Part shown: in pieces, positions 24,729 to 34,053 of the stretch
Position numbering within the stretch: the stretch's first letter is position 1
Layout of the letters: every line of letters begins with the position of its first letter
NCBI GenBank assembly: GCA_017882375.1
Contig: JADGPP010000024.1
Coordinates: forward strand, 1-43,915
Source: Solirubrobacteraceae bacterium
GTDB lineage: Bacteria; Actinomycetota; Thermoleophilia; Solirubrobacterales; Solirubrobacteraceae
DNA: 43,915 nucleotides
Direction: 5' to 3'
Notes under the pieces: model-generated
The model's database searches: none
What the model was told of the DNA's origin: nothing
What the model saw: the letters and a program-made list of their open reading frames with translations, nothing else
Made by a program: the position numbers and the translations under genes

Positions 24729-26183
24729 CTACTCGCTGGGCGCCCCGGCTAGAGGCTCGGCGACGGCAACCGGCGGGCCGAAGCTGACCTCCAGGCACGC
24801 GCCGCCGCCGCGCGCGTTGGCCGCCTTGGCATAGCCCTGGTGCGCCTCGGCGGCCTGGCGCACGATCGCCAGGCCAAGGCCCGAGCCGGGCAGCTTGCGC
24901 GCGCGCTCGGCGCGGTAGAAGCGCTCAAAGACCTTCCCCAGCTCGTCCTCTGAGAAGCCGGGGCCGTGGTCGCGCACCGTCAGCACGCCATTGCGCAGAG
25001 CGACCTCGACGACGCCGTCGGGCGGGCTCCACTTGCGCGCGTTGTCGAGCAGGTTCGACACCGCGCGGGCGATCCGATCGGCCTCGCCGCGGACGATCGT
25101 CGGCTGCAGATCGACATCGAAGCGAAGCTCGCCGCGGCGCCGAGCGCGGGTGACCGCATCGCCGACGATCTCGTCCACACGGACGTCCGTCAGCGCCGAC
25201 TCGCCACGCGAGCCGCGTGCCAGCTCGACGACGTCGGCGACCAGCGCCGTCAGCTCGTCGAGCTCGTCGATGATGTCCGCGCGCAGGCGCCGCTGCTCGG
25301 CCTGCGGCAGGCGGTGCGCGTCCTCGAGGACCTGGATGTTCGCGCGCAGCGAGGCGATCGGCGTGCGCAGCTCGTGGCTGGCGTCGGCGATCAGCTGGCG
25401 CTGTGCCGACAGCGCGCCCTGCAGCGCGTCGAGCGTCGTGTTGAAGCTCGCCGCCAGCCGCGCGAGCTCGTCGCGGCCGCCCACCTCCAGGCGCTGGGAC
25501 AGATCCATTTCGCCGGTGAGCGACTCCGTCCGGCGCGTAAAGCGGACTATCGGGCGCAGCGCCGTGCGCGCCACAAGCGCGCCCAGCAGCGCCGCGATGG
25601 CGATTCCCGCCAGTCCCACGACGAGCAGGATCAGCAGGATGCGATTGAGCTCGTGGTCGACCTCGTTCAGCGGTCGCGCGATCATCACCGCGCCCGAGGT
25701 CGCCGCAGCGGATTTCGCCGCAGCGGATGAGTGGACGCCGATCGTCAACACCCGCACGTGGGTGCCTTTGACGGTGCGGTCGCTGAGCGAGCGCCCGCTG
25801 CCGCGCGCGGCGATCTTGCGATCGGTCGCATTTGGCGGGACGGTCGGCGAGGAGCCCTGGCCACCGGGAACGTCGATCTTGCCCTGGCGCGAGATGAACT
25901 GCACATAGCCGGTCGCCCCGCCGAATTTCGCCGGCTGGATCGCCGCCGGGAACCTGCGAATGCGCGCGCCCTGCGGCGGTCGACCGGGGCCGAATCCGGG
26001 CCCGGCGTGACCGGGGCCGAGAGCGACGGCCGAGGTGAAGATCTGCGCGCGCTGGGACAGCGACTGGTCGATCTGTCCGCGCAGGTCGGAGCGCACGGCG
26101 AGATACAGGCTGACGGCGGCGACGAGGACCGCCAGCGCGACCGCGAGGCTCGCGACCGCGGCAATACGCGCGCGCAGCGTCAC
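24729..26183 (-). CDS. sensor histidine kinase of an OmpR-type two-component system
   Basis: 484 residues from GTG 26183. A first helix (IAAVASLAVALAVLVAAVSLYLAV) and a second (RILLILLVVGLAGIAIAALLGALV) enclose a ~150-residue extracytoplasmic sensor rich in Gly, Pro and Ala. A HAMP domain (ALRPIVRFTRRTESL...DELARLAASFN), the HisKA H-box ADASHELRTPIASLR (phospho-His270), and the HATPase N-box NLLDNARKWSP, G1 DHGPGFSEDELG and G2 GSGLGLAIVRQ follow; all catalytic residues are present. The frame stays open to GTG 26252, but the repeated operator at 26254-26280 would then leave no room for a promoter. Its likely partner is the response regulator at 32226-32900, at the far side of the export operon. 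Confidence 0.9.
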   Translation of the reverse strand: MTLRARIAAVASLAVALAVLVAAVSLYLAVRSDLRGQIDQSLSQRAQIFTSAVALGPGHAGPGFGPGRPPQGARIRRFPAAIQPAKFGGATGYVQFISRQGKIDVPGGQGSSPTVPPNATDRKIAARGSGRSLSDRTVKGTHVRVLTIGVHSSAAAKSAAATSGAVMIARPLNEVDHELNRILLILLVVGLAGIAIAALLGALVARTALRPIVRFTRRTESLTGEMDLSQRLEVGGRDELARLAASFNTTLDALQGALSAQRQLIADASHELRTPIASLRANIQVLEDAHRLPQAEQRRLRADIIDELDELTALVADVVELARGSRGESALTDVRVDEIVGDAVTRARRRGELRFDVDLQPTIVRGEADRIARAVSNLLDNARKWSPPDGVVEVALRNGVLTVRDHGPGFSEDELGKVFERFYRAERARKLPGSGLGLAIVRQAAEAHQGYAKAANARGGGACLEVSFGPPVAVAEPLAGAPSE

Positions 26184-26253
26184 GGCTCGCGCGGGATGTG
26201 GCTGGCTCCCATGTCGTGATTGTGACCTACCCGCAGTGGCCTCCGAGCCCACT

Positions 26254-26280
26254 CCTACGTTCGTCTTAGCCGAGCCTTAG
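26254..26280. promoter_or_regulatory. three 11-bp-phased repeats, OmpR/PhoB-type operator
   Basis: Read on the minus strand, CTAAG (26280-26276), CTAAG (26269-26265) and GTAGG (26258-26254) recur every 11 bp. This is the spacing of tandem sites for OmpR/PhoB winged-helix regulators. It lies between the divergent histidine kinase and the adaptor gene, and matches 32952-32978 upstream of the response regulator. Confidence 0.6.
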
Positions 26281-26348
26281 GGCGTTCTTGTGAACGGCGG
26301 CGATGCTCGACGTCGCTGCCTGCGCTGCGCGGGAGAAAGCTGCAACCC

Positions 26349-28640
26349 ATGCCCAAGCTCAACGAACGACCATGGCTCAACCTCGCGCTCGGCGTGCTCT
26401 GCATCGCCGCGATCGTCGTGGCCTACACGACCGTCGGCCAGGCGTCTTCGGCAACGGCGCAAAGCCGCCGCACGGCGGCGGTCGCGCAGGGAGTCGTCCA
26501 GTCGACGGTGTCGGGCAGCGGAACGCTCAAGCCCGCAGCGGACATCAGCGTCAACTTCGCCACGAGCGGAACGCTCAAAGGAGTCTTCGTGAGCGTCGGC
26601 GACCACGTCAAAGGCGGTCAGCTGCTCGCCGAAATCAACCCGAGCAGCGCGGAGTCGAGCCTGCACTCGGCGGAAATCGCCCTGACTACCGATGAGGCCT
26701 CCTATCAGGACGCGGTCAAGGGACTCACGCCCGCCGAACAGCGCCAGGCCGAAATCAGCGCCGAACAGTCACGAGCGTCAGTCAACTCCGCCAGGCAGTC
26801 GCTCAAGCAGGACGAGCAGACAGCAAAATCCGAAGCGTCTTCGGCCAGCGTGACCGTCGCGCAGGATGAAGTCTCGCTGAAGAGCACCGAACAGTCGGTC
26901 GCCGTCGAAGCCAAGAGTCAGCAGGATTCGGTCAACCAGGACATAGGCCAGCGCAGCACTGATGAAAAAACGGTCGTCGAAGCCAAGTCTCAGGTCGAAG
27001 AAGCGAAGTCACAGCTCGCCGCAGAAAGGAACAAGGCACCGTCTAACGAACAGAAGGTGAACTCCGCTGAATCGAAGCTCAGCTCGGCCGAATCGGCTGT
27101 CAAGTCAGACGAAGCGAAAGTGGTTCAGGACGGCTACACGATAACCAGCGCGCAGAACAATCAGGCGGCGGGGACCGTCAAGGGCCAGCAATCGATCGAC
27201 AGCGCGCGTAACGGGGTCACCAGCGCGAAGAAGACCAAGGCCTCGACCAAGCTCCACAACGACCAGACGATCGCGCAGGCGCGGACGACCCTGTCAAGCC
27301 AGGAACTATCGCTGCAGTCCACCCTGGCCTCCAACGAAGTCAAAGCCGCGCCGGCGAAAACGTCGACCGTAGTGAGCGCCGAGAACACCGTCAAGAGCGC
27401 GCGCATGACAGTCGAAAAAGCACGCCAGACGCTCTCCGAAACGAAGCTCTACGCACCCACCGAAGGCGTGGTCGCGTCGATCAAAAATACGGTCGGCGAA
27501 AGCATCTCGGGCACGGGCACAGAAGCATCGTCCAACAGCAGCGGCTCGAGCGGGACCAGCGCCACCGGTGGCAGCGCTACGAGCGGTGGCGGGAGCAGCT
27601 CGGGCAGCGCCGGCGGGGCCAGCGGTAGCGGAACCAGCGGGACCGGCACTAGCGCAACGGGCAAAAGCGCGGAAGCAAGCGGCAGCGGGACGAGCGGCAG
27701 CGGGACGAGCGGCAGCGGGACGAGCGGCAGCGGGACGAGCAGCGGTGCGACCAACGGTGCCAGTAGCAGCGGCGGTGGGACCAGCGGGACCAGTGGCAGC
27801 GGGACCGCGACCAGCGGCGCCGGTACCAGCGGTAGCGCTACGAGCGGAGCCGGCAGCGGGAGTAGCCCTTCCGAAGGCGGCGGCGTCTCGACCACAAGCA
27901 ATGGCGGCGGTGGCAGATATCAGGACATCGCCTACACGAGCTCCAGCAGTGGCACGTATCGGAACATCGCTAGTTCGAGCACGAGCGGCGGCGGTACAAG
28001 CGGCGGCAGTTCCGCCACCGGCAGCTCCGGGACGGGCGCCTCCAGTACGAGCAGCGAAAGCAGCAGCAGTAGTAGTTCGTTCATCGAACTGGTTGACGTG
28101 CAGGGCTACCAGGTGGTGGTGCCGTTGAGCGAATCTGAAATCGGCAACGTGCGTGTCGGACAGATCGCCACGGTCACCGTCGAAGCGCTCGAAGGCCGCA
28201 AGTTCGCCGCCCAGGTGGTGAGCTTGCCTGTTCTCTCGACGAGCAGCAGCGGCGCGGCGAGCTATAGCGTCACCTTCCAGCTCGAACAAACCGCGCCCGG
28301 GTTGAAGCCTGGGATGAGCGCAACCGCCGAAGTCGTCGTCAAACAGGCCGAAGGCATCAACGTGCCGACGAGCGCGATCACGGCCGGTAGCGTGACCGTG
28401 GAGCGCGGCGGCAAGCAGGTCAGCCAGGCCGTGACGACAGGGCTGGCGGGCAACAGCAGCACGATCATTCTCAGCGGCCTGAAGGCCGGAGAAACGGTGC
28501 TTCTGCCGGCGACGAGCAGCACGACCTCGAGCGGCGCGAGCGTGACCTCCAAATCGGGTGGGCGTAGCGGTGGGGGCTTCGGCGGCGGTGGGGGCTTCGG
28601 CGGCGGCGGCTTCGGCGGCGGGGGACCCCCGGGCGGATGA
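26349..28640 (+). CDS. MacA/HlyD-type periplasmic adaptor with long Ser/Gly/Thr linker
   Basis: 763 residues, about twice the normal adaptor length. An N-terminal helix (LNLALGVLCIAAIVVAYTTV) anchors it. The first half of the lipoyl/barrel-sandwich domain (VVQSTVSGSGTLKPAADISVNFATSGTLKGVFVSVGDHVKGGQLLAEI) is followed by a very long coiled coil (~100-365), the second lipoyl half (KLYAPTEGVVASIKNTVGESI), then ~190 residues of Ser/Gly/Thr (about 388-577), the beta-barrel (QGYQVVVPLSESEIGNVRVGQIATVTVEAL) and membrane-proximal domain, and a Gly-rich tail. It should couple the MacB-like transporter downstream to the wall. The stop overlaps the ATPase start (ATGA). Glu codons are nearly all GAA, unlike most neighbours. 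Confidence 0.85.
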   Translation: MPKLNERPWLNLALGVLCIAAIVVAYTTVGQASSATAQSRRTAAVAQGVVQSTVSGSGTLKPAADISVNFATSGTLKGVFVSVGDHVKGGQLLAEINPSSAESSLHSAEIALTTDEASYQDAVKGLTPAEQRQAEISAEQSRASVNSARQSLKQDEQTAKSEASSASVTVAQDEVSLKSTEQSVAVEAKSQQDSVNQDIGQRSTDEKTVVEAKSQVEEAKSQLAAERNKAPSNEQKVNSAESKLSSAESAVKSDEAKVVQDGYTITSAQNNQAAGTVKGQQSIDSARNGVTSAKKTKASTKLHNDQTIAQARTTLSSQELSLQSTLASNEVKAAPAKTSTVVSAENTVKSARMTVEKARQTLSETKLYAPTEGVVASIKNTVGESISGTGTEASSNSSGSSGTSATGGSATSGGGSSSGSAGGASGSGTSGTGTSATGKSAEASGSGTSGSGTSGSGTSGSGTSSGATNGASSSGGGTSGTSGSGTATSGAGTSGSATSGAGSGSSPSEGGGVSTTSNGGGGRYQDIAYTSSSSGTYRNIASSSTSGGGTSGGSSATGSSGTGASSTSSESSSSSSSFIELVDVQGYQVVVPLSESEIGNVRVGQIATVTVEALEGRKFAAQVVSLPVLSTSSSGAASYSVTFQLEQTAPGLKPGMSATAEVVVKQAEGINVPTSAITAGSVTVERGGKQVSQAVTTGLAGNSSTIILSGLKAGETVLLPATSSTTSSGASVTSKSGGRSGGGFGGGGGFGGGGFGGGGPPGG
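27678..27737 (+). repeat. four perfect 15-bp tandem repeats inside the adaptor gene
   Basis: AGCGGCAGCGGGACG occurs four times in a row (27678, 27693, 27708, 27723), coding for SGSGT each time. Unit length is a multiple of three, so gain or loss of copies would change linker length without breaking the frame. Confidence 0.9.
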
Positions 28641-29542
28641 GGTCTTTGATGCGCGCCGCAAGGAACCCCGACCCGGGAGCCGGCGGGCCAGGACGGCTTG
28701 CTCGCGAGCGGCCCTTGGTCGACCGCGCCTCCTCAGCGCGGCAGCCTCCGGCGGGCGACGGCCCGCGCCAGCGACCACTAGCAATCCAGGTGCGCGAAGT
28801 CACAAAGACCTACGAGCTTGGGCAGATCAAGGTGCGCGCGCTGCGCAATGTCTCACTGCAGATCGAGCGGGGCGACTTCGTCGCGATCATGGGCAGCTCA
28901 GGCAGCGGCAAGAGCACGCTGATGAACATCCTCGGCTGCCTGGACATACCCTCAAGCGGTAGCTATCTGATCGACGGAGTGGATGTCAGCAGCCTGGACG
29001 AGGACGATCTCTCCGACCTGCGCAGCCGCAAGATCGGCTTCATCTTTCAAAGCTTCAACCTAGTCTCGCGCACGAGCGCGATCGCCAACGTGGAGCTCCC
29101 GCTCGCCTACGCGGGAGTCGACCGCGCAACGCGCCGCCAGCGCGCAGAGGATGCGCTGAGCGCGGTCGGCATGGCCAACCGCCTGCACCATCAGTCATCC
29201 GAGCTCTCGGGTGGGCAGCAGCAGCGGGTAGCCGTCGCGCGGGCGATCGTAACCAACCCAACGCTGATCCTCGCCGATGAGCCGACTGGAAACCTCGACT
29301 CGCACTCCACCGAGGGCGTGTTGAGGATCTTTGCCCGACTGAATGAAGAAGGCCGGACCGTGGTCCTGATCACGCACGAGCCCGACGTCGCCGAACTGGC
29401 CAAGCGGGTGGTCAGACTGAGTGACGGCGAGGTCGTGGAGGATCGCCGCATCACCGGAGCGCACGACGTCCCGCCCGCGCTCCAGCACTTGAAGTCTGCG
29501 CACCACGCGCCCGACGCGAACGCCCCGGGGACGCAATCGTGA
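28637..29542 (+). CDS. ABC transporter ATP-binding protein, MacB/LolD type
   Basis: 301 residues. After an unusual ~48-residue basic, Pro-rich N-terminal extension, the ATPase domain begins at [15 protein letters not shown]. Walker A is GSSGSGKST, the Q-loop is FIFQSFNLV, the signature is LSGGQQQR, Walker B is [12 protein letters not shown], and the switch His lies in [11 protein letters not shown]. The family powers MacB-type efflux or lipoprotein release by mechanotransmission. ATG 28637 overlaps the adaptor stop, and the end overlaps the permease start (GTGA), so adaptor, ATPase and permease are made together. The true start could be an internal one nearer the domain, but the overlap favours the first ATG. 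Confidence 0.92.
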
Positions 29543-30756
29543 TTGGCCCCGAGACACTTCGCATCGCGTGGGGCGGGATCACTGCGAACAAGCTGCGCTC
29601 CGGGCTGACGATCCTCGGCATGACGATCGGGGTCGCTTCGGTGATCGTACTGATCGCCGTCGGCAATGGCTCCTCCAAGGCTGTCAAGTCTCAGATCCAA
29701 CGCCTCGGGACGAACGTGCTGCTCGTGATGGCGGGCGCCGGACGTGGGGGCCCACGCGCGTCCAGCTCGACGAGCATCTCGCTGACCAAGGCGGACGCCG
29801 AAGCGCTGCATAACCCCAACCTCGCGCCGGATGTCAAAAGCGCCTCGCCGGTGGCCGAGGCGAGCAGCGTGAAACTCGTCTACAACGGCTCCAGCTTCGA
29901 ACCGTCGTCGTTTATCGGCACCACGCCCTCCTATCTGACGGCCCACAGCTACAAGCTCGCCGAAGGCGCCTCGCTCACCTCCGAAGACGTGAGCAAGCAC
30001 AAGCGCGTGGCCGTGATCGGCCAGGAAGTCGTGCAGGAACTGTTCGCCGGCTCAAGCGCCGTCGGGCAGAACATCAAGGTCAATGGCAGCAACTTCGAAG
30101 TGGTCGGCGTGCTTGCCAAAAAGGGAACGAACGGCACCACCAACGAGGACAACGTCGTGATGGCCCCGATCACCACGGTGCAGAGCACGCTCACCGGCGC
30201 CGGCTCGATCAACTCGATCACGGTCGAGGCGAAGTCCGAATCAGCGCTCAACGCCGCCGAAGGCGAGGTCACCCAGATCATCGAGGAACGTCACAAGATC
30301 AAGAACACCTCAGAACCGGGCTTCAGCGTCCTCAACCAGGGGTCGCTGCTGTCGACCTCGAGCTCCTCCAGCGGCGTGTTCACGACACTCCTCGGAGAGG
30401 TGGCCGCGATCTCGCTGCTCGTCGGCGGGATCGGCGTCATGAACATCATGCTCGTGAGCGTCACCGAGCGCACTAGGGAGATCGGCATCCGCAAGGCGCT
30501 CGGCGCCCGCCGCTCAGACATCCTCACGCAGTTCCTGACCGAGGCCGTGCTGGTCTCGCTGATCGGTGGCATGAGCGGCGTGCTCGTCGGCGTCATCGGC
30601 AGCCAGTTCAAGATCGCCGGTGTCCAACCGGAAATCGCCACCTACTCGATCTTCCTCGCGTTCGGCGCGGCGGCGCTGTCCGGCCTGTTCTTCGGCACCT
30701 ACCCCGCCGCTCGCGCCGCCGCGCTGCGACCGATCGAAGCGCTGCGCTTTGAGTGA
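29539..30756 (+). CDS. MacB/FtsX-type ABC permease
   Basis: 405 residues with the four-helix MacB plan. Helix 1 ([26 protein letters not shown], ~19-45) carries the 'NKLRSxLTxLGxxIGVxxVI' signature. A large extracytoplasmic MacB_PCD domain (~55-275) follows, then the FtsX block with three helices: [40 protein letters not shown], the helix [24 protein letters not shown], and [34 protein letters not shown], all diagnostic. It forms the membrane dimer for the ATPase upstream and docks the HlyD-like adaptor. GTG 29539 overlaps the ATPase stop. The exported substrate is unknown; the two downstream envelope proteins are possible partners. Confidence 0.93.
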
Positions 30757-30784
30757 GCAACCTTCCCCCATAGAGGAGTCCGCC

Positions 30785-31492
30785 ATGCCCGACGAGCAAC
30801 AGACAATCCACGACCCCGCCGTCCAGGCGCCGGAGACGCTCGCGTATGAGCCGATCGAGGACGAGCAGGACGACTGGACCGAGGAGCCCGAGGAGCTGCC
30901 GCGCCGGCCGCGCCGGCGTCTGCTGACGCCCGTGCCGCTGGCGCTGCTCGCCGTGCTGCTGATCGCCTGCGGCTTCATCGGCGGCGTGCTCGTGCAGAAG
31001 GGCCAAGGCGGCACGGCCTCGGCGAGCGCCGGCGCGAGCGCCGGCTTCGCCTCGCGCCTGGCCGCCCTGAGAGGCGCTGCGCGCGGCGCCGGCGCGACCG
31101 GCGGCGCCGCCTCCGCCGGCGGCTCCGCAGCGAGAGCCGGCGCGGGCGCGTTTGCGGGCCTCGGCGGATCGGGCGGCGGCGTCACCACGGGCGAAGTCGC
31201 CTACGTGCGCGGCAACACGCTGTACGTGACCGACAGCCAGGGCAACACGGTCAAGGTCGATGCCGGCGCCGGATCGAAAGTGACGAAGACCGTCAGCACG
31301 AAGGCAAAGGACATCCACCCCGGGGCGACGGTCGTCGTGCTGGGCAGCAAAGCCAACAACGGCAGCATCAGCGCGACTTCGATCAGCGTCAGCTCGACTG
31401 CCTCGGACAGCACGACAGGCACCGGCGCGGGCTCGTCCGCCACAGGCGCGAGCAGCAGCGCCGGCACCCCCACGCTGTTCGGCCCCGGCTAG
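30785..31492 (+). CDS. membrane-anchored small beta-domain protein (DUF5666-like)
   Basis: 235 residues from ATG 30785, which follows AGAGGAG. A 50-residue acidic cytoplasmic part (MPDEQQTIHDPAVQAPE...EEPEELPRRPRRR) leads to one membrane helix PVPLALLAVLLIACGFIGGVLV (~57-78). An Ala/Gly-rich spacer exposes a small beta domain: TTGEVAYVRGNTLYVTDSQGNTVKVDAGAGSKVTK...IHPGATVVVLGSKANNGSISATSISV. That 'GxV-x-x-V-x-G-x-x-L-x-V-x-x-x-x-G-x-x-V' pattern is like the DUF5666 OB/beta-barrel fold. The Ser/Thr-rich end is flexible. It is 28 bp after the permease, so very likely part of the export operon. A longer frame upstream overlaps the permease and is not used. Confidence 0.7.
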   Translation: MPDEQQTIHDPAVQAPETLAYEPIEDEQDDWTEEPEELPRRPRRRLLTPVPLALLAVLLIACGFIGGVLVQKGQGGTASASAGASAGFASRLAALRGAARGAGATGGAASAGGSAARAGAGAFAGLGGSGGGVTTGEVAYVRGNTLYVTDSQGNTVKVDAGAGSKVTKTVSTKAKDIHPGATVVVLGSKANNGSISATSISVSSTASDSTTGTGAGSSATGASSSAGTPTLFGPG

Positions 31493-31527
31493 CCGCAGAC
31501 ACCCACCAACGAACAAGGAAGCGATAA

Positions 31528-32217
31528 ATGCCCACCTACCCACGTCCCGTCCCTCGACCGACCAGGCGCCAGCGCATCCGGCCGCTTCTCGTGCTGTGCG
31601 CTCTCGGCGCGTGTGTGGCGCTCGCGGCGTGTGGAAGCTCAGGCGGCGGCGCGACCTCCGCCAAGAGCTCCAGCACGTCGGCGAGCAACGCCGACGGGCT
31701 GGGCTCGAGCCGGTTCGCGGCGCTCAGCTCCTGCCTGAAGAAGCAGGGCATCACGCTGCCCTCGGCGCCGTCCCGCGCGGGCGGCCAGCCTGGCGGACCG
31801 ACCGCCGGCGCACCGGGTGGCCGGCCCGGCGGCTTTCAGCTGCCCAAAGGCGTCACCCGGGCTCAGCTGCAGGCGGCGCTGAAGAAATGCGGCGCCGACA
31901 AATTCCTGCGGCGCGGACCGGGGACCCTCAACAGCGCGTCCTCGCGGGCGGGGCTGGTCAAGTACGCAGCGTGCCTGCGCCAGAACGGCGTCAACGTGCC
32001 GGCGCCCAACACCACGGGCAAAGGCCCGGTGTTCAGCACCAAAGGCATCGACACGTCCAGCAGCAAGTTCAAGTCTGCCCAGAGCAAGTGTCAGAGCGAC
32101 CTCAGAGGCGCCTTCGCCGGCGGGGCGGGCGGCGGCGCGCCGCCTTCGGGCGCGCCGAGTGGCACGCCACCGGCCGGCGGCGGCCCACCGCCCGTGGGCG
32201 AAGGCTCCGCCGGGTAG
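31528..32217 (+). CDS. lipoprotein with duplicated Cys/‘CLRxNGVxxP’ motif
   Basis: 229 residues from ATG 31528 behind AAGGAAG. A lipobox (VALAAC-GSS, Cys at about 35) marks it as a lipoprotein attached outside the membrane. Two related halves follow: SSCLKKQGITLPSAPS...LQAALKKCGADKF and AACLRQNGVNVPAPNTTGKGPVF...SAQSKCQSDL. Each pairs a Cys near 'K/R-x-x-G-x-x-x-P' with a second Cys 40-70 residues later, suggesting two disulfide-closed units. Gly/Pro-rich linkers flank them. This type is common in actinobacteria (often 'YAxCMRxNGVxxFPDP') but has no known function. It is 35 bp after the DUF5666-like gene and ends the export operon, 8 bp from the convergent response regulator. Confidence 0.75.
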   Translation: MPTYPRPVPRPTRRQRIRPLLVLCALGACVALAACGSSGGGATSAKSSSTSASNADGLGSSRFAALSSCLKKQGITLPSAPSRAGGQPGGPTAGAPGGRPGGFQLPKGVTRAQLQAALKKCGADKFLRRGPGTLNSASSRAGLVKYAACLRQNGVNVPAPNTTGKGPVFSTKGIDTSSSKFKSAQSKCQSDLRGAFAGGAGGGAPPSGAPSGTPPAGGGPPPVGEGSAG

Positions 32218-32225
32218 CAATCGCG

Positions 32226-32900
32226 TCAGGGCTCGCGCAGCACGTAGCCGACGCCGCGAACGGTGTGGATGAGATCGCCCGCGCCGATCTCATCCAGCTT
32301 GCGCCGCAGGTAGCCGACGTACACGCGCAGGGCGTTCGACGCCGCGCCGAAGTCATATCCCCAGACACGGTCGTAGATCACGCTGTGCGCCAGCACCTGG
32401 CGGGGGTTGCGCATGAACAGCTCCAGCAGCTGGTACTCGGTGCGCGTCAGCTCGACGATCTGCCCGCCGACGCTCGCGCCGTGACGCGCTCGATCCAGGC
32501 GCACCTCGGCGAAGGACAGCTCGTCGGGGTCACCCTCGGGGCCGGTCCGGCGCAGCAGCGCCCGCAGCCGCGCCTTCAGCTCCTCCACGTCGAACGGCTT
32601 GACCAGATAGTCGTCGGCGCCGGCATCCAGGCCGGCCACGCGGTCTGAGATCTCCACGCGCGCGGTGAGCATCAGGATCGGCACACGATTGCCGAGCATG
32701 CGCAGGCGCGCGCACACCTCCAGCCCATCGACGTCGGGCATGCCGACGTCCAGCACGACCGCGTCCGGAACAGCCTGCACGACCGCCTCGATCGCCTCCG
32801 TACCGCCGTCGGCGCTCTGCACCTCATATCCGGCGAGCGTCAGCACGCGCCGCAGCGCTTCGCGCACGGCCCGATCGTCATCGACCACGAGGACCCTCAT
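32226..32900 (-). CDS. OmpR/PhoB-family response regulator
   Basis: 224 residues. The receiver domain has the acidic cluster VVDDDRAVREAL, phospho-acceptor Asp51 in AVVLDVGMPDVDG, Thr in LMLTARVE and Lys in YLVKPFDVEEL. The C-terminal winged helix reads IVELTRTEYQLLELFMRNPRQVLAHSVIYDRVWGYDFGAASNALRVYVGYLRRKLD...IHTVRGVGYVLRE. ATG 32900 is chosen because it opens directly on MRVLVVDDD. Convergent with the lipoprotein gene, so the regulator closes the export locus from the other side while the kinase opens it. The upstream repeats at 32952-32978 suggest it controls its own gene, the kinase and probably the operon. Confidence 0.93.
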   Translation of the reverse strand: MRVLVVDDDRAVREALRRVLTLAGYEVQSADGGTEAIEAVVQAVPDAVVLDVGMPDVDGLEVCARLRMLGNRVPILMLTARVEISDRVAGLDAGADDYLVKPFDVEELKARLRALLRRTGPEGDPDELSFAEVRLDRARHGASVGGQIVELTRTEYQLLELFMRNPRQVLAHSVIYDRVWGYDFGAASNALRVYVGYLRRKLDEIGAGDLIHTVRGVGYVLREP

Positions 32901-32951
32901 GTGTCGATTGTCGCGCACCGTCCGCACCAGACGGCAGGCTGCAGGGCAGCT

Positions 32952-32978
32952 CCTACATTGCTCTTACGTGCCCTTTGC
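32952..32978. promoter_or_regulatory. 11-bp-phased repeats upstream of the response regulator
   Basis: On the minus strand GTAAG (32967-32963) and GTAGG (32956-32952) are 11 bp apart, with a weaker GCAAA another 11 bp up (32978-32974). On the plus strand CTCCTACATTGCTCTTAC matches CTCCTACGTTCGTCTTAG at 26252-26269 in 14 of 18 positions. It ends 52 bp before the response regulator ATG. Confidence 0.55.
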
Positions 32979-33022
32979 GGCGCGGCGGGGTAGTTAGGTG
33001 GAGGCGGCAGGTGTGTCCTTTC

Positions 33023-33089
33023 ACGCCCATACGCCTATACGCCCACACGCCTATACGCCCAATGCGCCTCATACGTCCCATACGCCCAT
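33023..33089. repeat. octamer tandem repeat ending in a start codon
   Basis: Eight units of ACGCCYAT type: four or five exact-length octamers (33023, 33031, 33039, 33047, 33055) followed by three 8-9-mers (33064, 33073, 33082). The last unit's AT plus the next base form the ATG of the alpha/beta hydrolase at 33088. No ribosome site is present in the array. Confidence 0.85.
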
Positions 33090-34053
33090 GAGTCCAGCAG
33101 CCACTGCCAAAGCAGAAGCCCCCGAGACATCGTCGAGGCCGTCCGGCGGGCGGCTGCTCGAGCAGCCCCAGCTGCGCCGGCTGACCCTCCACGGCCATCG
33201 GATCGCCTACCGCAAGGCCGGCAGCGGCCCGGCGCTGGTGCTGATCCACGGGATCACGTCGAGCTCGGCCACGTGGGAGCGGGTGATGCCGTATCTGGCG
33301 CGCCACTTCACGGTGATCGCACCCGACCTCGTCGGGCACGGCGAATCGGACAAGCCGCGCGGGGACTACTCGCTCGGTGCGCACGCCAGCAGCATTCGCG
33401 ACCTGCTGCTCGTGCTCGGGCACGAGCGCGCGAGCATCGTCGGGCACTCGCTTGGCGGCGGTATCGCCATGCAGTTCGCCTACCAGTTCCCCGAGCGCTG
33501 CGAACGCCTGGCACTGGTGGACACCGGCGGCCTCGGCAGAGATGTCAACGTGCTGCTGCGCGCGGCGACGCTGCCCGGTGCCGAGTTCGTCCTGCCGCTG
33601 CTCGCGGCCACCCGGCTGCTCGACGCCGGGCGGCTCGCGGTGGGCGTGCTGCGCAGCCTCGGCCTGCGCGCTCGCACCGACGTCGAGGAGATGGCGCGCG
33701 GGCACGCGACGCTGTCCGATGCCGAGGCGCGGGCGGCGTTCGTGCACACGCTGCGCTCCGTCGTCGAGCCGGGCGGACAGCGCGTCGACGCATCCAATCG
33801 CCTGTACCTTTCCGCGCACATCCCGTTCCTGCTCGTGTGGGGCGAGCACGACTCGATCATCCCGATCGCCCACGGCCGCGCGGCACACGAACAGGTCATT
33901 CAGAGCCGCCTCGAGGTGTTCGCCAACTCCGGGCACTTCCCGCAGCTGGACGAGCCGCATCGCTTCATCGACGTGCTCGTCGACTTCGTCGAGTCGACCG
34001 ATCCGGCCACGCTCGACGCTGAAGGCTGGCGCGAGCTGCTCGACCCGCACTAG
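33088..34053 (+). CDS. alpha/beta hydrolase
   Basis: 321 residues with the full fold. LVLIHGITSSSATWERVMPYLA carries the oxyanion HG, FTVIAPDLVGHGESDKP follows, the nucleophile Ser121 is in VGHSLGGG, Asp255 is in LLVWGEHDSIIP, and His283 is in NSGHFPQLDEP. The cap between strands is rich in Leu and Arg. It could be an esterase, haloperoxidase-like or C-C hydrolase; the substrate is not predictable. ATG 33088 is the first ATG, lying at the end of an octamer repeat, but the frame is open to GTG 32998, so the repeat might be translated as a HTPIRPHAYTP-like tail. The body is preceded by a 30-residue variable leader. Confidence 0.85.
   Translation: MSPAATAKAEAPETSSRPSGGRLLEQPQLRRLTLHGHRIAYRKAGSGPALVLIHGITSSSATWERVMPYLARHFTVIAPDLVGHGESDKPRGDYSLGAHASSIRDLLLVLGHERASIVGHSLGGGIAMQFAYQFPERCERLALVDTGGLGRDVNVLLRAATLPGAEFVLPLLAATRLLDAGRLAVGVLRSLGLRARTDVEEMARGHATLSDAEARAAFVHTLRSVVEPGGQRVDASNRLYLSAHIPFLLVWGEHDSIIPIAHGRAAHEQVIQSRLEVFANSGHFPQLDEPHRFIDVLVDFVESTDPATLDAEGWRELLDPH

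What the first reader, a model, noticed from the sequence alone, without database searches (positions are those of the whole stretch)
26252..26280. Matching 11-bp-phased sites at 26254-26280 and 32952-32978
CTCCTACGTTCGTCTTAG and CTCCTACATTGCTCTTAC share 14 of 18 bases, lie at similar distances before the kinase (71 bp from GTG 26183) and regulator (52 bp) starts, and show 5-bp half-sites every 11 bp, the known spacing for OmpR/PhoB dimers. This supports autoregulation and also the shorter kinase start.
Basis: partly seen in the sequence, partly recalled or inferred. Interest (0 to 1): 0.6.

Follow-up and report, generated by a model that had tools for sequence, protein, structure and literature searches.

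The report
Two matching autoregulatory regulator-binding promoter sites
Two matching DNA sites in this soil actinobacterium (order Solirubrobacterales) are very probably where a two-component regulator binds to switch on its own gene, its split-off partner kinase and an efflux-pump operon; the type of switch is ordinary, but its layout is unusually conserved, reaching Streptomyces.

Summary
The 18-mers at 26252-26269 and 32950-32967 share 14/18 bases and carry half-sites every 11 bp. A matrix built without the window ranks the two sites first and second in it (28.9 and 25.8 bits; next 4.2). The full promoter pattern occurs exactly twice in the 3.57-Mb genome, at these two places. Across 232 genomes, 20 of 22 matches are RR/HK promoters; the reversed-pattern control gives 1.

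The kinase start is GTG 26183, the ancestral RR-HK overlap. Elsewhere RR and HK are adjacent; here a MacAB-like operon has split them, and HK has its own promoter with the ancestral 60-bp geometry, which would start transcription at a 10-codon minicistron ending in the old RR stop.

Binding and activation are untested. Verdict: a new member of a known kind (OmpR/PhoB-type autoregulation).

The parts
26252..26280 (-). Site 1: phased regulator box, read towards HK as CTAAG-N6-CTAAG-N6-GTAGGAG
   Evidence: Second-best matrix hit in window; one of only two promoter-pattern matches in the genome
26254..26307 (+). macA-like promoter on the same site: CCTAC/CTTAG/CTTAG/CTTGT at 11-bp phase, N10, GATGCT (-10, 26302-26307)
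   Evidence: Same geometry in relatives; phase 11/spacing 10 ranks 1 of 77 in 15 promoters not used to define it
26219..26224 (-). Predicted -10 (CACAAT) of the HK promoter
   Evidence: 28 bp from the box, as in RR orthologue promoters
26180..26212 (-). Leaderless 10-codon minicistron MGASHIPREP*, whose TGA overlaps the HK start (GTGA); its 3' end is the ancestral RR 3' end
   Evidence: CGCGAGCCGTGACGCTGCG matches RR-HK junctions of relatives
24729..26183 (-). Histidine kinase (HAMP-HisKA-HATPase), start GTG 26183
   Evidence: Pfam; junction homology
26349..28640 (+). Membrane-fusion (MacA/HlyD-like) protein
   Evidence: TIGR01730 95.7 bits, cut-off 94.9
28637..29542 (+). MacB-type ABC ATPase
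   Evidence: PF00005
29539..30756 (+). MacB-like permease
   Evidence: PF12704 and PF02687
30791..32217 (+). Two small secreted/lipoprotein-like ORFs (P5 30791-31492; P6 31528-32217) of the same operon
   Evidence: Co-occur with macB in relatives; no Pfam or NCBIfam match
32226..32900 (-). OmpR/PhoB-family response regulator, leaderless ATG 32900-32898
   Evidence: PF00072 and PF00486; orthologues
32950..32967 (-). Site 2: regulator box GTAAG-N6-GTAGGAG
   Evidence: Best matrix hit in window; conserved upstream of orthologues
32907..32912 (-). Predicted -10 (GACAAT) of the RR promoter
   Evidence: Conserved in orthologues
26177..26192 (-). 16-bp junction repeat GCGCGAGCCGTGACGC (HK side of the inserted operon)
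   Evidence: 15/16 match to 32223-32238
32223..32238 (-). 16-bp junction repeat GCGCGAGCCCTGACGC (RR side)

Best explanation
The two sites are operators of the OmpR/PhoB-family response regulator encoded at 32226-32900. Phosphorylated regulator binds head-to-tail to 5-bp half-sites (CTTAG/CTTAC/CCTAC) repeated every 11 bp. At site 2 it acts upstream of the leaderless RR promoter (autoregulation, probably positive, since the box lies upstream of the -35 position). At site 1 it acts in two directions: on HK through a promoter with the same box, -10 and leaderless ATG, followed by a 10-codon minicistron coupled to HK at GTG 26183; and on the divergent macA-macB-like efflux operon through four phased half-sites ending 10 bp before GATGCT, the geometry of PhoB-type promoters. 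Shown by sequence: the sites, their conservation, the phasing, the spacings and the ancestral RR-HK junction. Inferred: binding, the sign of regulation, the transcription starts and translational coupling. Also inferred: the operon was inserted at the junction of an RR-HK operon, and the separated kinase retains or acquired a copy of the regulator's promoter.
For: Box plus leaderless -10 architecture in 22 of 34 other orthologue upstream regions, 20 of them with box-to-start 58-63 bp. Pattern TAAGN6GTAGGA...ACAAT: exactly two in own genome, both sites; 20 of 22 order-wide matches are RR/HK promoters, reversed control 1. Matrix ranks 1 and 2. The HK promoter has the ancestral 60-bp geometry; own RR and G202 have +10 bp. 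Streptomyces homologues: GTGAG-N6-GTAAR in 49 of 51, mostly at a fixed 65-66 bp from the -10, about two turns more than the usual 45. macA-type promoters: phase 11/spacing 10 ranks 1 of 77, 0 of 300 shuffles. A same-genus mac operon, G153, has the box CTAAGAGGAACGTAGG before macA and carries an RR with the recognition-helix motif SNALRVYVGYLRRKL. The own-genome paralogue C10 has SLGVYMGYLRRKT and no box. Junction homology.
Against: No binding or expression data. Twelve of 35 RR orthologue upstream regions lack the exact box; some have the RR downstream of other genes, one (G201) has an inverted box and one (G220) a three-half-site variant, and others are unexplained. In the RR/HK promoters the repeats point opposite to transcription, unlike canonical pho boxes. 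The macA geometry model was set up by eye on four promoters before testing on fifteen. A related OmpR-family paralogue could bind the same half-sites.
Confidence: 0.85

Rival explanations
1. The sites are operators of this family but mainly bound by another OmpR-family regulator of the genome (for example the C10 or C54 paralogue), so it is cross-regulation rather than autoregulation.
For: Eleven Trans_reg_C matches in the genome. The only other CTTASN6CTTAS match in the genome lies upstream of the C54 regulator, whose recognition helix also reads VYVGYLRRKL.
Against: The box tracks this regulator's own gene across genomes; 20 of 22 pattern matches are its promoters or that of its kinase. The C10 paralogue differs in the helix (G for R) and has no box.
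Confidence: 0.1
2. The conserved block is a core-promoter or sigma-factor element (a conserved -35-like region with a -10) rather than a regulator operator.
For: It always sits upstream of a CACAAT -10 at nearly fixed distance.
Against: It lies 28 bp from the -10, too far for a -35. The distance changes in whole helical turns (45, 55, 65-66 bp from box start to -10). It is a tandem repeat with 11-bp phase, and it is inverted in G201 and at macA promoters.
Confidence: 0.04
3. The match between the two sites is only shared descent of a duplicated promoter segment, without present function at HK.
For: The HK promoter copies the RR promoter layout, including the ATG, and is joined to a remnant of the RR 3' end.
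Against: Outside the box, the -10 and the ATG the two sequences have diverged while the functional elements are kept. The same array keeps exact 10-bp spacing to the macA -10.
Confidence: 0.07

Closest known systems
PhoB/PhoP-type response regulators and pho boxes (E. coli PhoB, Streptomyces PhoP)
   Same: Winged-helix OmpR/PhoB regulator. Operator of 11-bp direct-repeat units, as described for PHO boxes in PMC4415409. The macA promoter array ends 10 bp from the -10; that pho boxes sit so is from my own knowledge.
   Different: Half-site is CTTAG/CTTAC/CCTAC, not CTGTCAT or GTTCACC. The regulator is below the PhoB equivalog cut-off (205 against 296 bits). At RR/HK promoters the repeats are reversed and 28 bp from the -10.
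M. tuberculosis PrrA (PDB 1ys6) and PhoP (PDB 9ji3, 3r0j)
   Same: Closest solved full-length relatives of the regulator (E about 1e-57).
   Different: Their operators and gene neighbourhoods were not compared here.
MacAB/HlyD-type efflux operons
   Same: Membrane-fusion protein, ABC ATPase and MacB_PCD/FtsX permease in one operon.
   Different: ATPase and permease are separate genes; below the MacA and MacB equivalog cut-offs; carries two extra secreted-type ORFs.
Streptomyces RR homologues at 56-62% identity (for example S. bluensis, S. griseofuscus)
   Same: Leaderless-type promoter with a GTGAG-N6-GTAAR repeat in 49 of 51.
   Different: Box about two helical turns further from the -10; HK only about 34% identical.

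Membership tests
OmpR/PhoB-family response regulator | Receiver domain plus Trans_reg_C winged helix | tested here: met
   PF00072 115 bits and PF00486 88.9 bits, both above cut-off
OmpR/PhoB-family response regulator | Operator made of direct repeats with about 11-bp phase | tested here: met
   STAAG-N6-GTAGG in 23 orthologue promoters including own; phase 11 best in macA promoters
OmpR/PhoB-family response regulator | Phosphorylated protein binds the repeats | not testable with these tools
   Needs gel shift or DAP-seq
PhoB (phosphate regulon) proper | NCBIfam PhoB equivalog cut-off | tested here: not met
   205.1 against 296.2 bits
MacAB tripartite efflux system | MacA and MacB equivalog models | tested here: not met
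   MacA 52 against 342 bits; MacB 270 (ATPase) and 243 (permease) against 966 bits
MacAB-like ABC efflux operon | Membrane-fusion protein, ATPase and MacB_PCD/FtsX permease together | tested here: met
   TIGR01730, PF00005, PF12704, PF02687
Leaderless actinobacterial promoter | -10 element 5-9 nt before an ATG/GTG, no ribosome-binding site | tested here: met
   Sequence layout in orthologues; transcription start not mapped
Leaderless actinobacterial promoter | Mapped 5' end at the start codon | not testable with these tools
   Needs transcription-start mapping

The most novel reading that the evidence does not exclude
An undescribed regulator-operator family conserved from Thermoleophilia to Streptomyces, whose box moves relative to a leaderless -10 only in whole helical turns (45, 55 and 65-66 bp). 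Here it rewired an efflux operon by insertion at the RR/HK junction, leaving HK under a copied autoregulated promoter that starts in a coupling minicistron made from the old RR 3' end.
Probability: 0.35. Interest if true: 0.5.

Novelty: new member of a known kind. Interest (0 to 1): 0.4.

Why it matters
It gives a concrete operator for a widespread but apparently uncharacterised actinobacterial two-component system and links that system to a MacAB-like efflux operon. It fixes a kinase start codon. It is also a readable case of how a transport operon comes under a two-component system's control and how a kinase cut off from its regulator comes to have its own autoregulated promoter.

Tried and rejected
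Genome-wide CTTASN6CTTAS and STAAGN6STAGG scans are not enriched (2 and 6 hits, controls 6 and 6), so no large regulon can be claimed from half-sites alone. G054 and G059 pattern matches do not precede a regulator gene and were treated as chance. The long kinase start at 26252 was rejected because it lies upstream of the predicted promoter and orthologues start at the RR overlap. The idea that other genomes share the inserted operon between RR1 and HK1 was tested and not found among the orthologous loci examined, several of which are cut by contig ends. Literature searches gave no paper on this operator.

Full report
Setting. The window lies on contig C132 of a 3.57-Mb genome in 172 contigs. 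The named records of its relatives are Solirubrobacterales/Solirubrobacteraceae metagenome-assembled genomes. The gene order is: HK (24729-26183, minus), a membrane-fusion protein, an ABC ATPase, a MacB-like permease and two small ORFs (26349-32217, plus), then an OmpR-family response regulator (32226-32900, minus). Site 1 lies between HK and the divergent membrane-fusion gene. Site 2 lies upstream of the regulator, facing an alpha/beta-hydrolase gene.

Observation. The two 18-mers are at 26252-26269 and 32950-32967 and agree at 14 of 18 positions. Half-sites recur every 11 bp. To avoid judging them by their own pattern, I built a matrix from 22 boxes upstream of orthologous regulators with the window left out. 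It scores the two sites at 28.9 and 25.8 bits, the next site in the window at 4.2, and no site in 100 random Markov-1 windows above 18.2.

Footprinting. A search of 232 genomes of the order returned a group of regulator orthologues at about 67-82% identity, above paralogues at 64% or less. Thirty-five upstream regions, own included, were read. Twenty-three carry STAAG/ATAAG-N6-GTAGGA (two with GTATGA, one with GTAAGA), followed after 26-28 bp (38 bp in two) by a CACAAT-like hexamer that lies directly before the start codon, which implies leaderless mRNA. In 20 of the 22 other genomes the distance from box start to the end of the start codon is 58-63 bp. In G202 and in the own regulator promoter it is 70 bp. 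In G136 the start used was further in, but an in-frame ATG sits at 61 bp. In several genomes of genus g17 the box overlaps the 3' end of an upstream gene whose translation, read by eye, looks like NusB; the box is kept there too. Of the 12 regions without the exact box, G201 has it inverted and G220 has a CTAAG/CGAAG/ATAAG array. In G151, G152, G158, G161 and G165 the upstream stretch looks protein-coding (read by eye).

Specificity. The pattern TAAGN6GTAGGA, a variable gap, ACAAT matches 22 times in the 232 genomes; the reversed control matches once. Twenty of the 22 precede a regulator of this family or, in the window, its kinase; G054 and G059 do not. The own genome has exactly two matches, the two sites of the finding.

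Streptomyces. Homologues at 56-62% identity carry GTGAG-N6-GTAAR upstream of the gene in 49 of 51 cases, and in most of these the distance from box start to a CACACT-like -10 is fixed at 65-66 bp. The corresponding distances are 45 bp in the order and 55 bp for the own regulator and G202. The steps are close to whole helical turns, which suggests that the bound regulator must face the polymerase from one side of the helix (inference).

Kinase start and operon split. In relatives, including G147 and G148 of the same genus with the same flanking genes, RR and HK are adjacent, typically overlapping as ...CGCGAGCCG-TGACGCTGCG. In the window this junction sequence is present immediately at HK, where CGCGAGCCGTGACGCTGCG includes GTG 26183, and a 16-bp copy (15/16) remains at the end of RR, so the junction sequence flanks the intervening operon on both sides. 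Upstream of HK the minus strand reads CTAAGACGAACGTAGGA, 28 bp, CACAAT, CACGAC, ATG: the regulator promoter with its ancestral 60-bp geometry. That ATG opens a 10-codon frame, MGASHIPREP*, whose stop overlaps the HK GTG. The simplest reading is that transcription starts at ATG 26212 and HK is translated by coupling at GTG 26183. The longer start at 26252 would lie upstream of the promoter.

Efflux operon. Read rightwards, site 1 is CCTAC-N6-CTTAG-N6-CTTAG-N6-CTTGT-N10-GATGCT. The same layout is visible at the mac operons of G146, G153 and G161. I noticed these four by eye, so I tested 15 further mac-type promoters: among 77 combinations of phase and spacing, 11 bp and 10 bp score highest, and none of 300 shuffles reaches the score. 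This is the geometry of PhoB-type activation, in which the operator replaces the -35. Eleven-base direct-repeat units are documented for PHO boxes (PMC4415409); the 10-bp distance to the -10 is from my own knowledge. In G153 the mac operon is followed by an RR-HK pair whose recognition helix matches that of the window's regulator, and its macA promoter carries CTAAGAGGAACGTAGG. In G145, whose permease fragment is 92% identical to the window's, the mac operon follows a different two-component pair (56% and 40%). The own genome has a related pair on C10 without a mac operon in the 18 kb examined. So the operon seems to have changed partners in this lineage (inference).

How it probably works. 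A signal sensed by HK phosphorylates the regulator. The regulator binds the phased arrays and raises its own expression, that of HK and that of the efflux operon. The signal and the exported substrate are unknown; the sign of autoregulation is inferred from the position of the box.

Verdict. The mechanism belongs to a well-known kind; what is new is this operator, its reach and the promoter history of the split operon.

Noticed in passing
G000:C54:42754-42769 (L039:1501-1516): The only other CTTASN6CTTAS match in the genome, CTAAGCGGCCGCTAAG, lies upstream of a different OmpR-family regulator and of a divergent membrane-protein-like gene.
   Followed up: partly
window 32963-32998: Read rightwards, site 2 gives CTTAC-N6-TTTGC-N10-GGTAGT, so it may also serve the divergent alpha/beta-hydrolase gene.
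   Followed up: no
window 30791-32217: Two small secreted-type ORFs (one with several cysteines) travel with the macB-like gene in many relatives and have no Pfam or NCBIfam match.
   Followed up: partly
G054:C60:39781-39824 (L241): A box-like pattern match just upstream of a stretch that resembles a SAM riboswitch by eye; not checked against Rfam.
   Followed up: no
window 33025-33090: Tandem CATACGCCTATACGCCCA-like repeats between site 2 and the hydrolase ATG 33088, which suggests the hydrolase start annotated by the longest ORF (32998) is too early.
   Followed up: no
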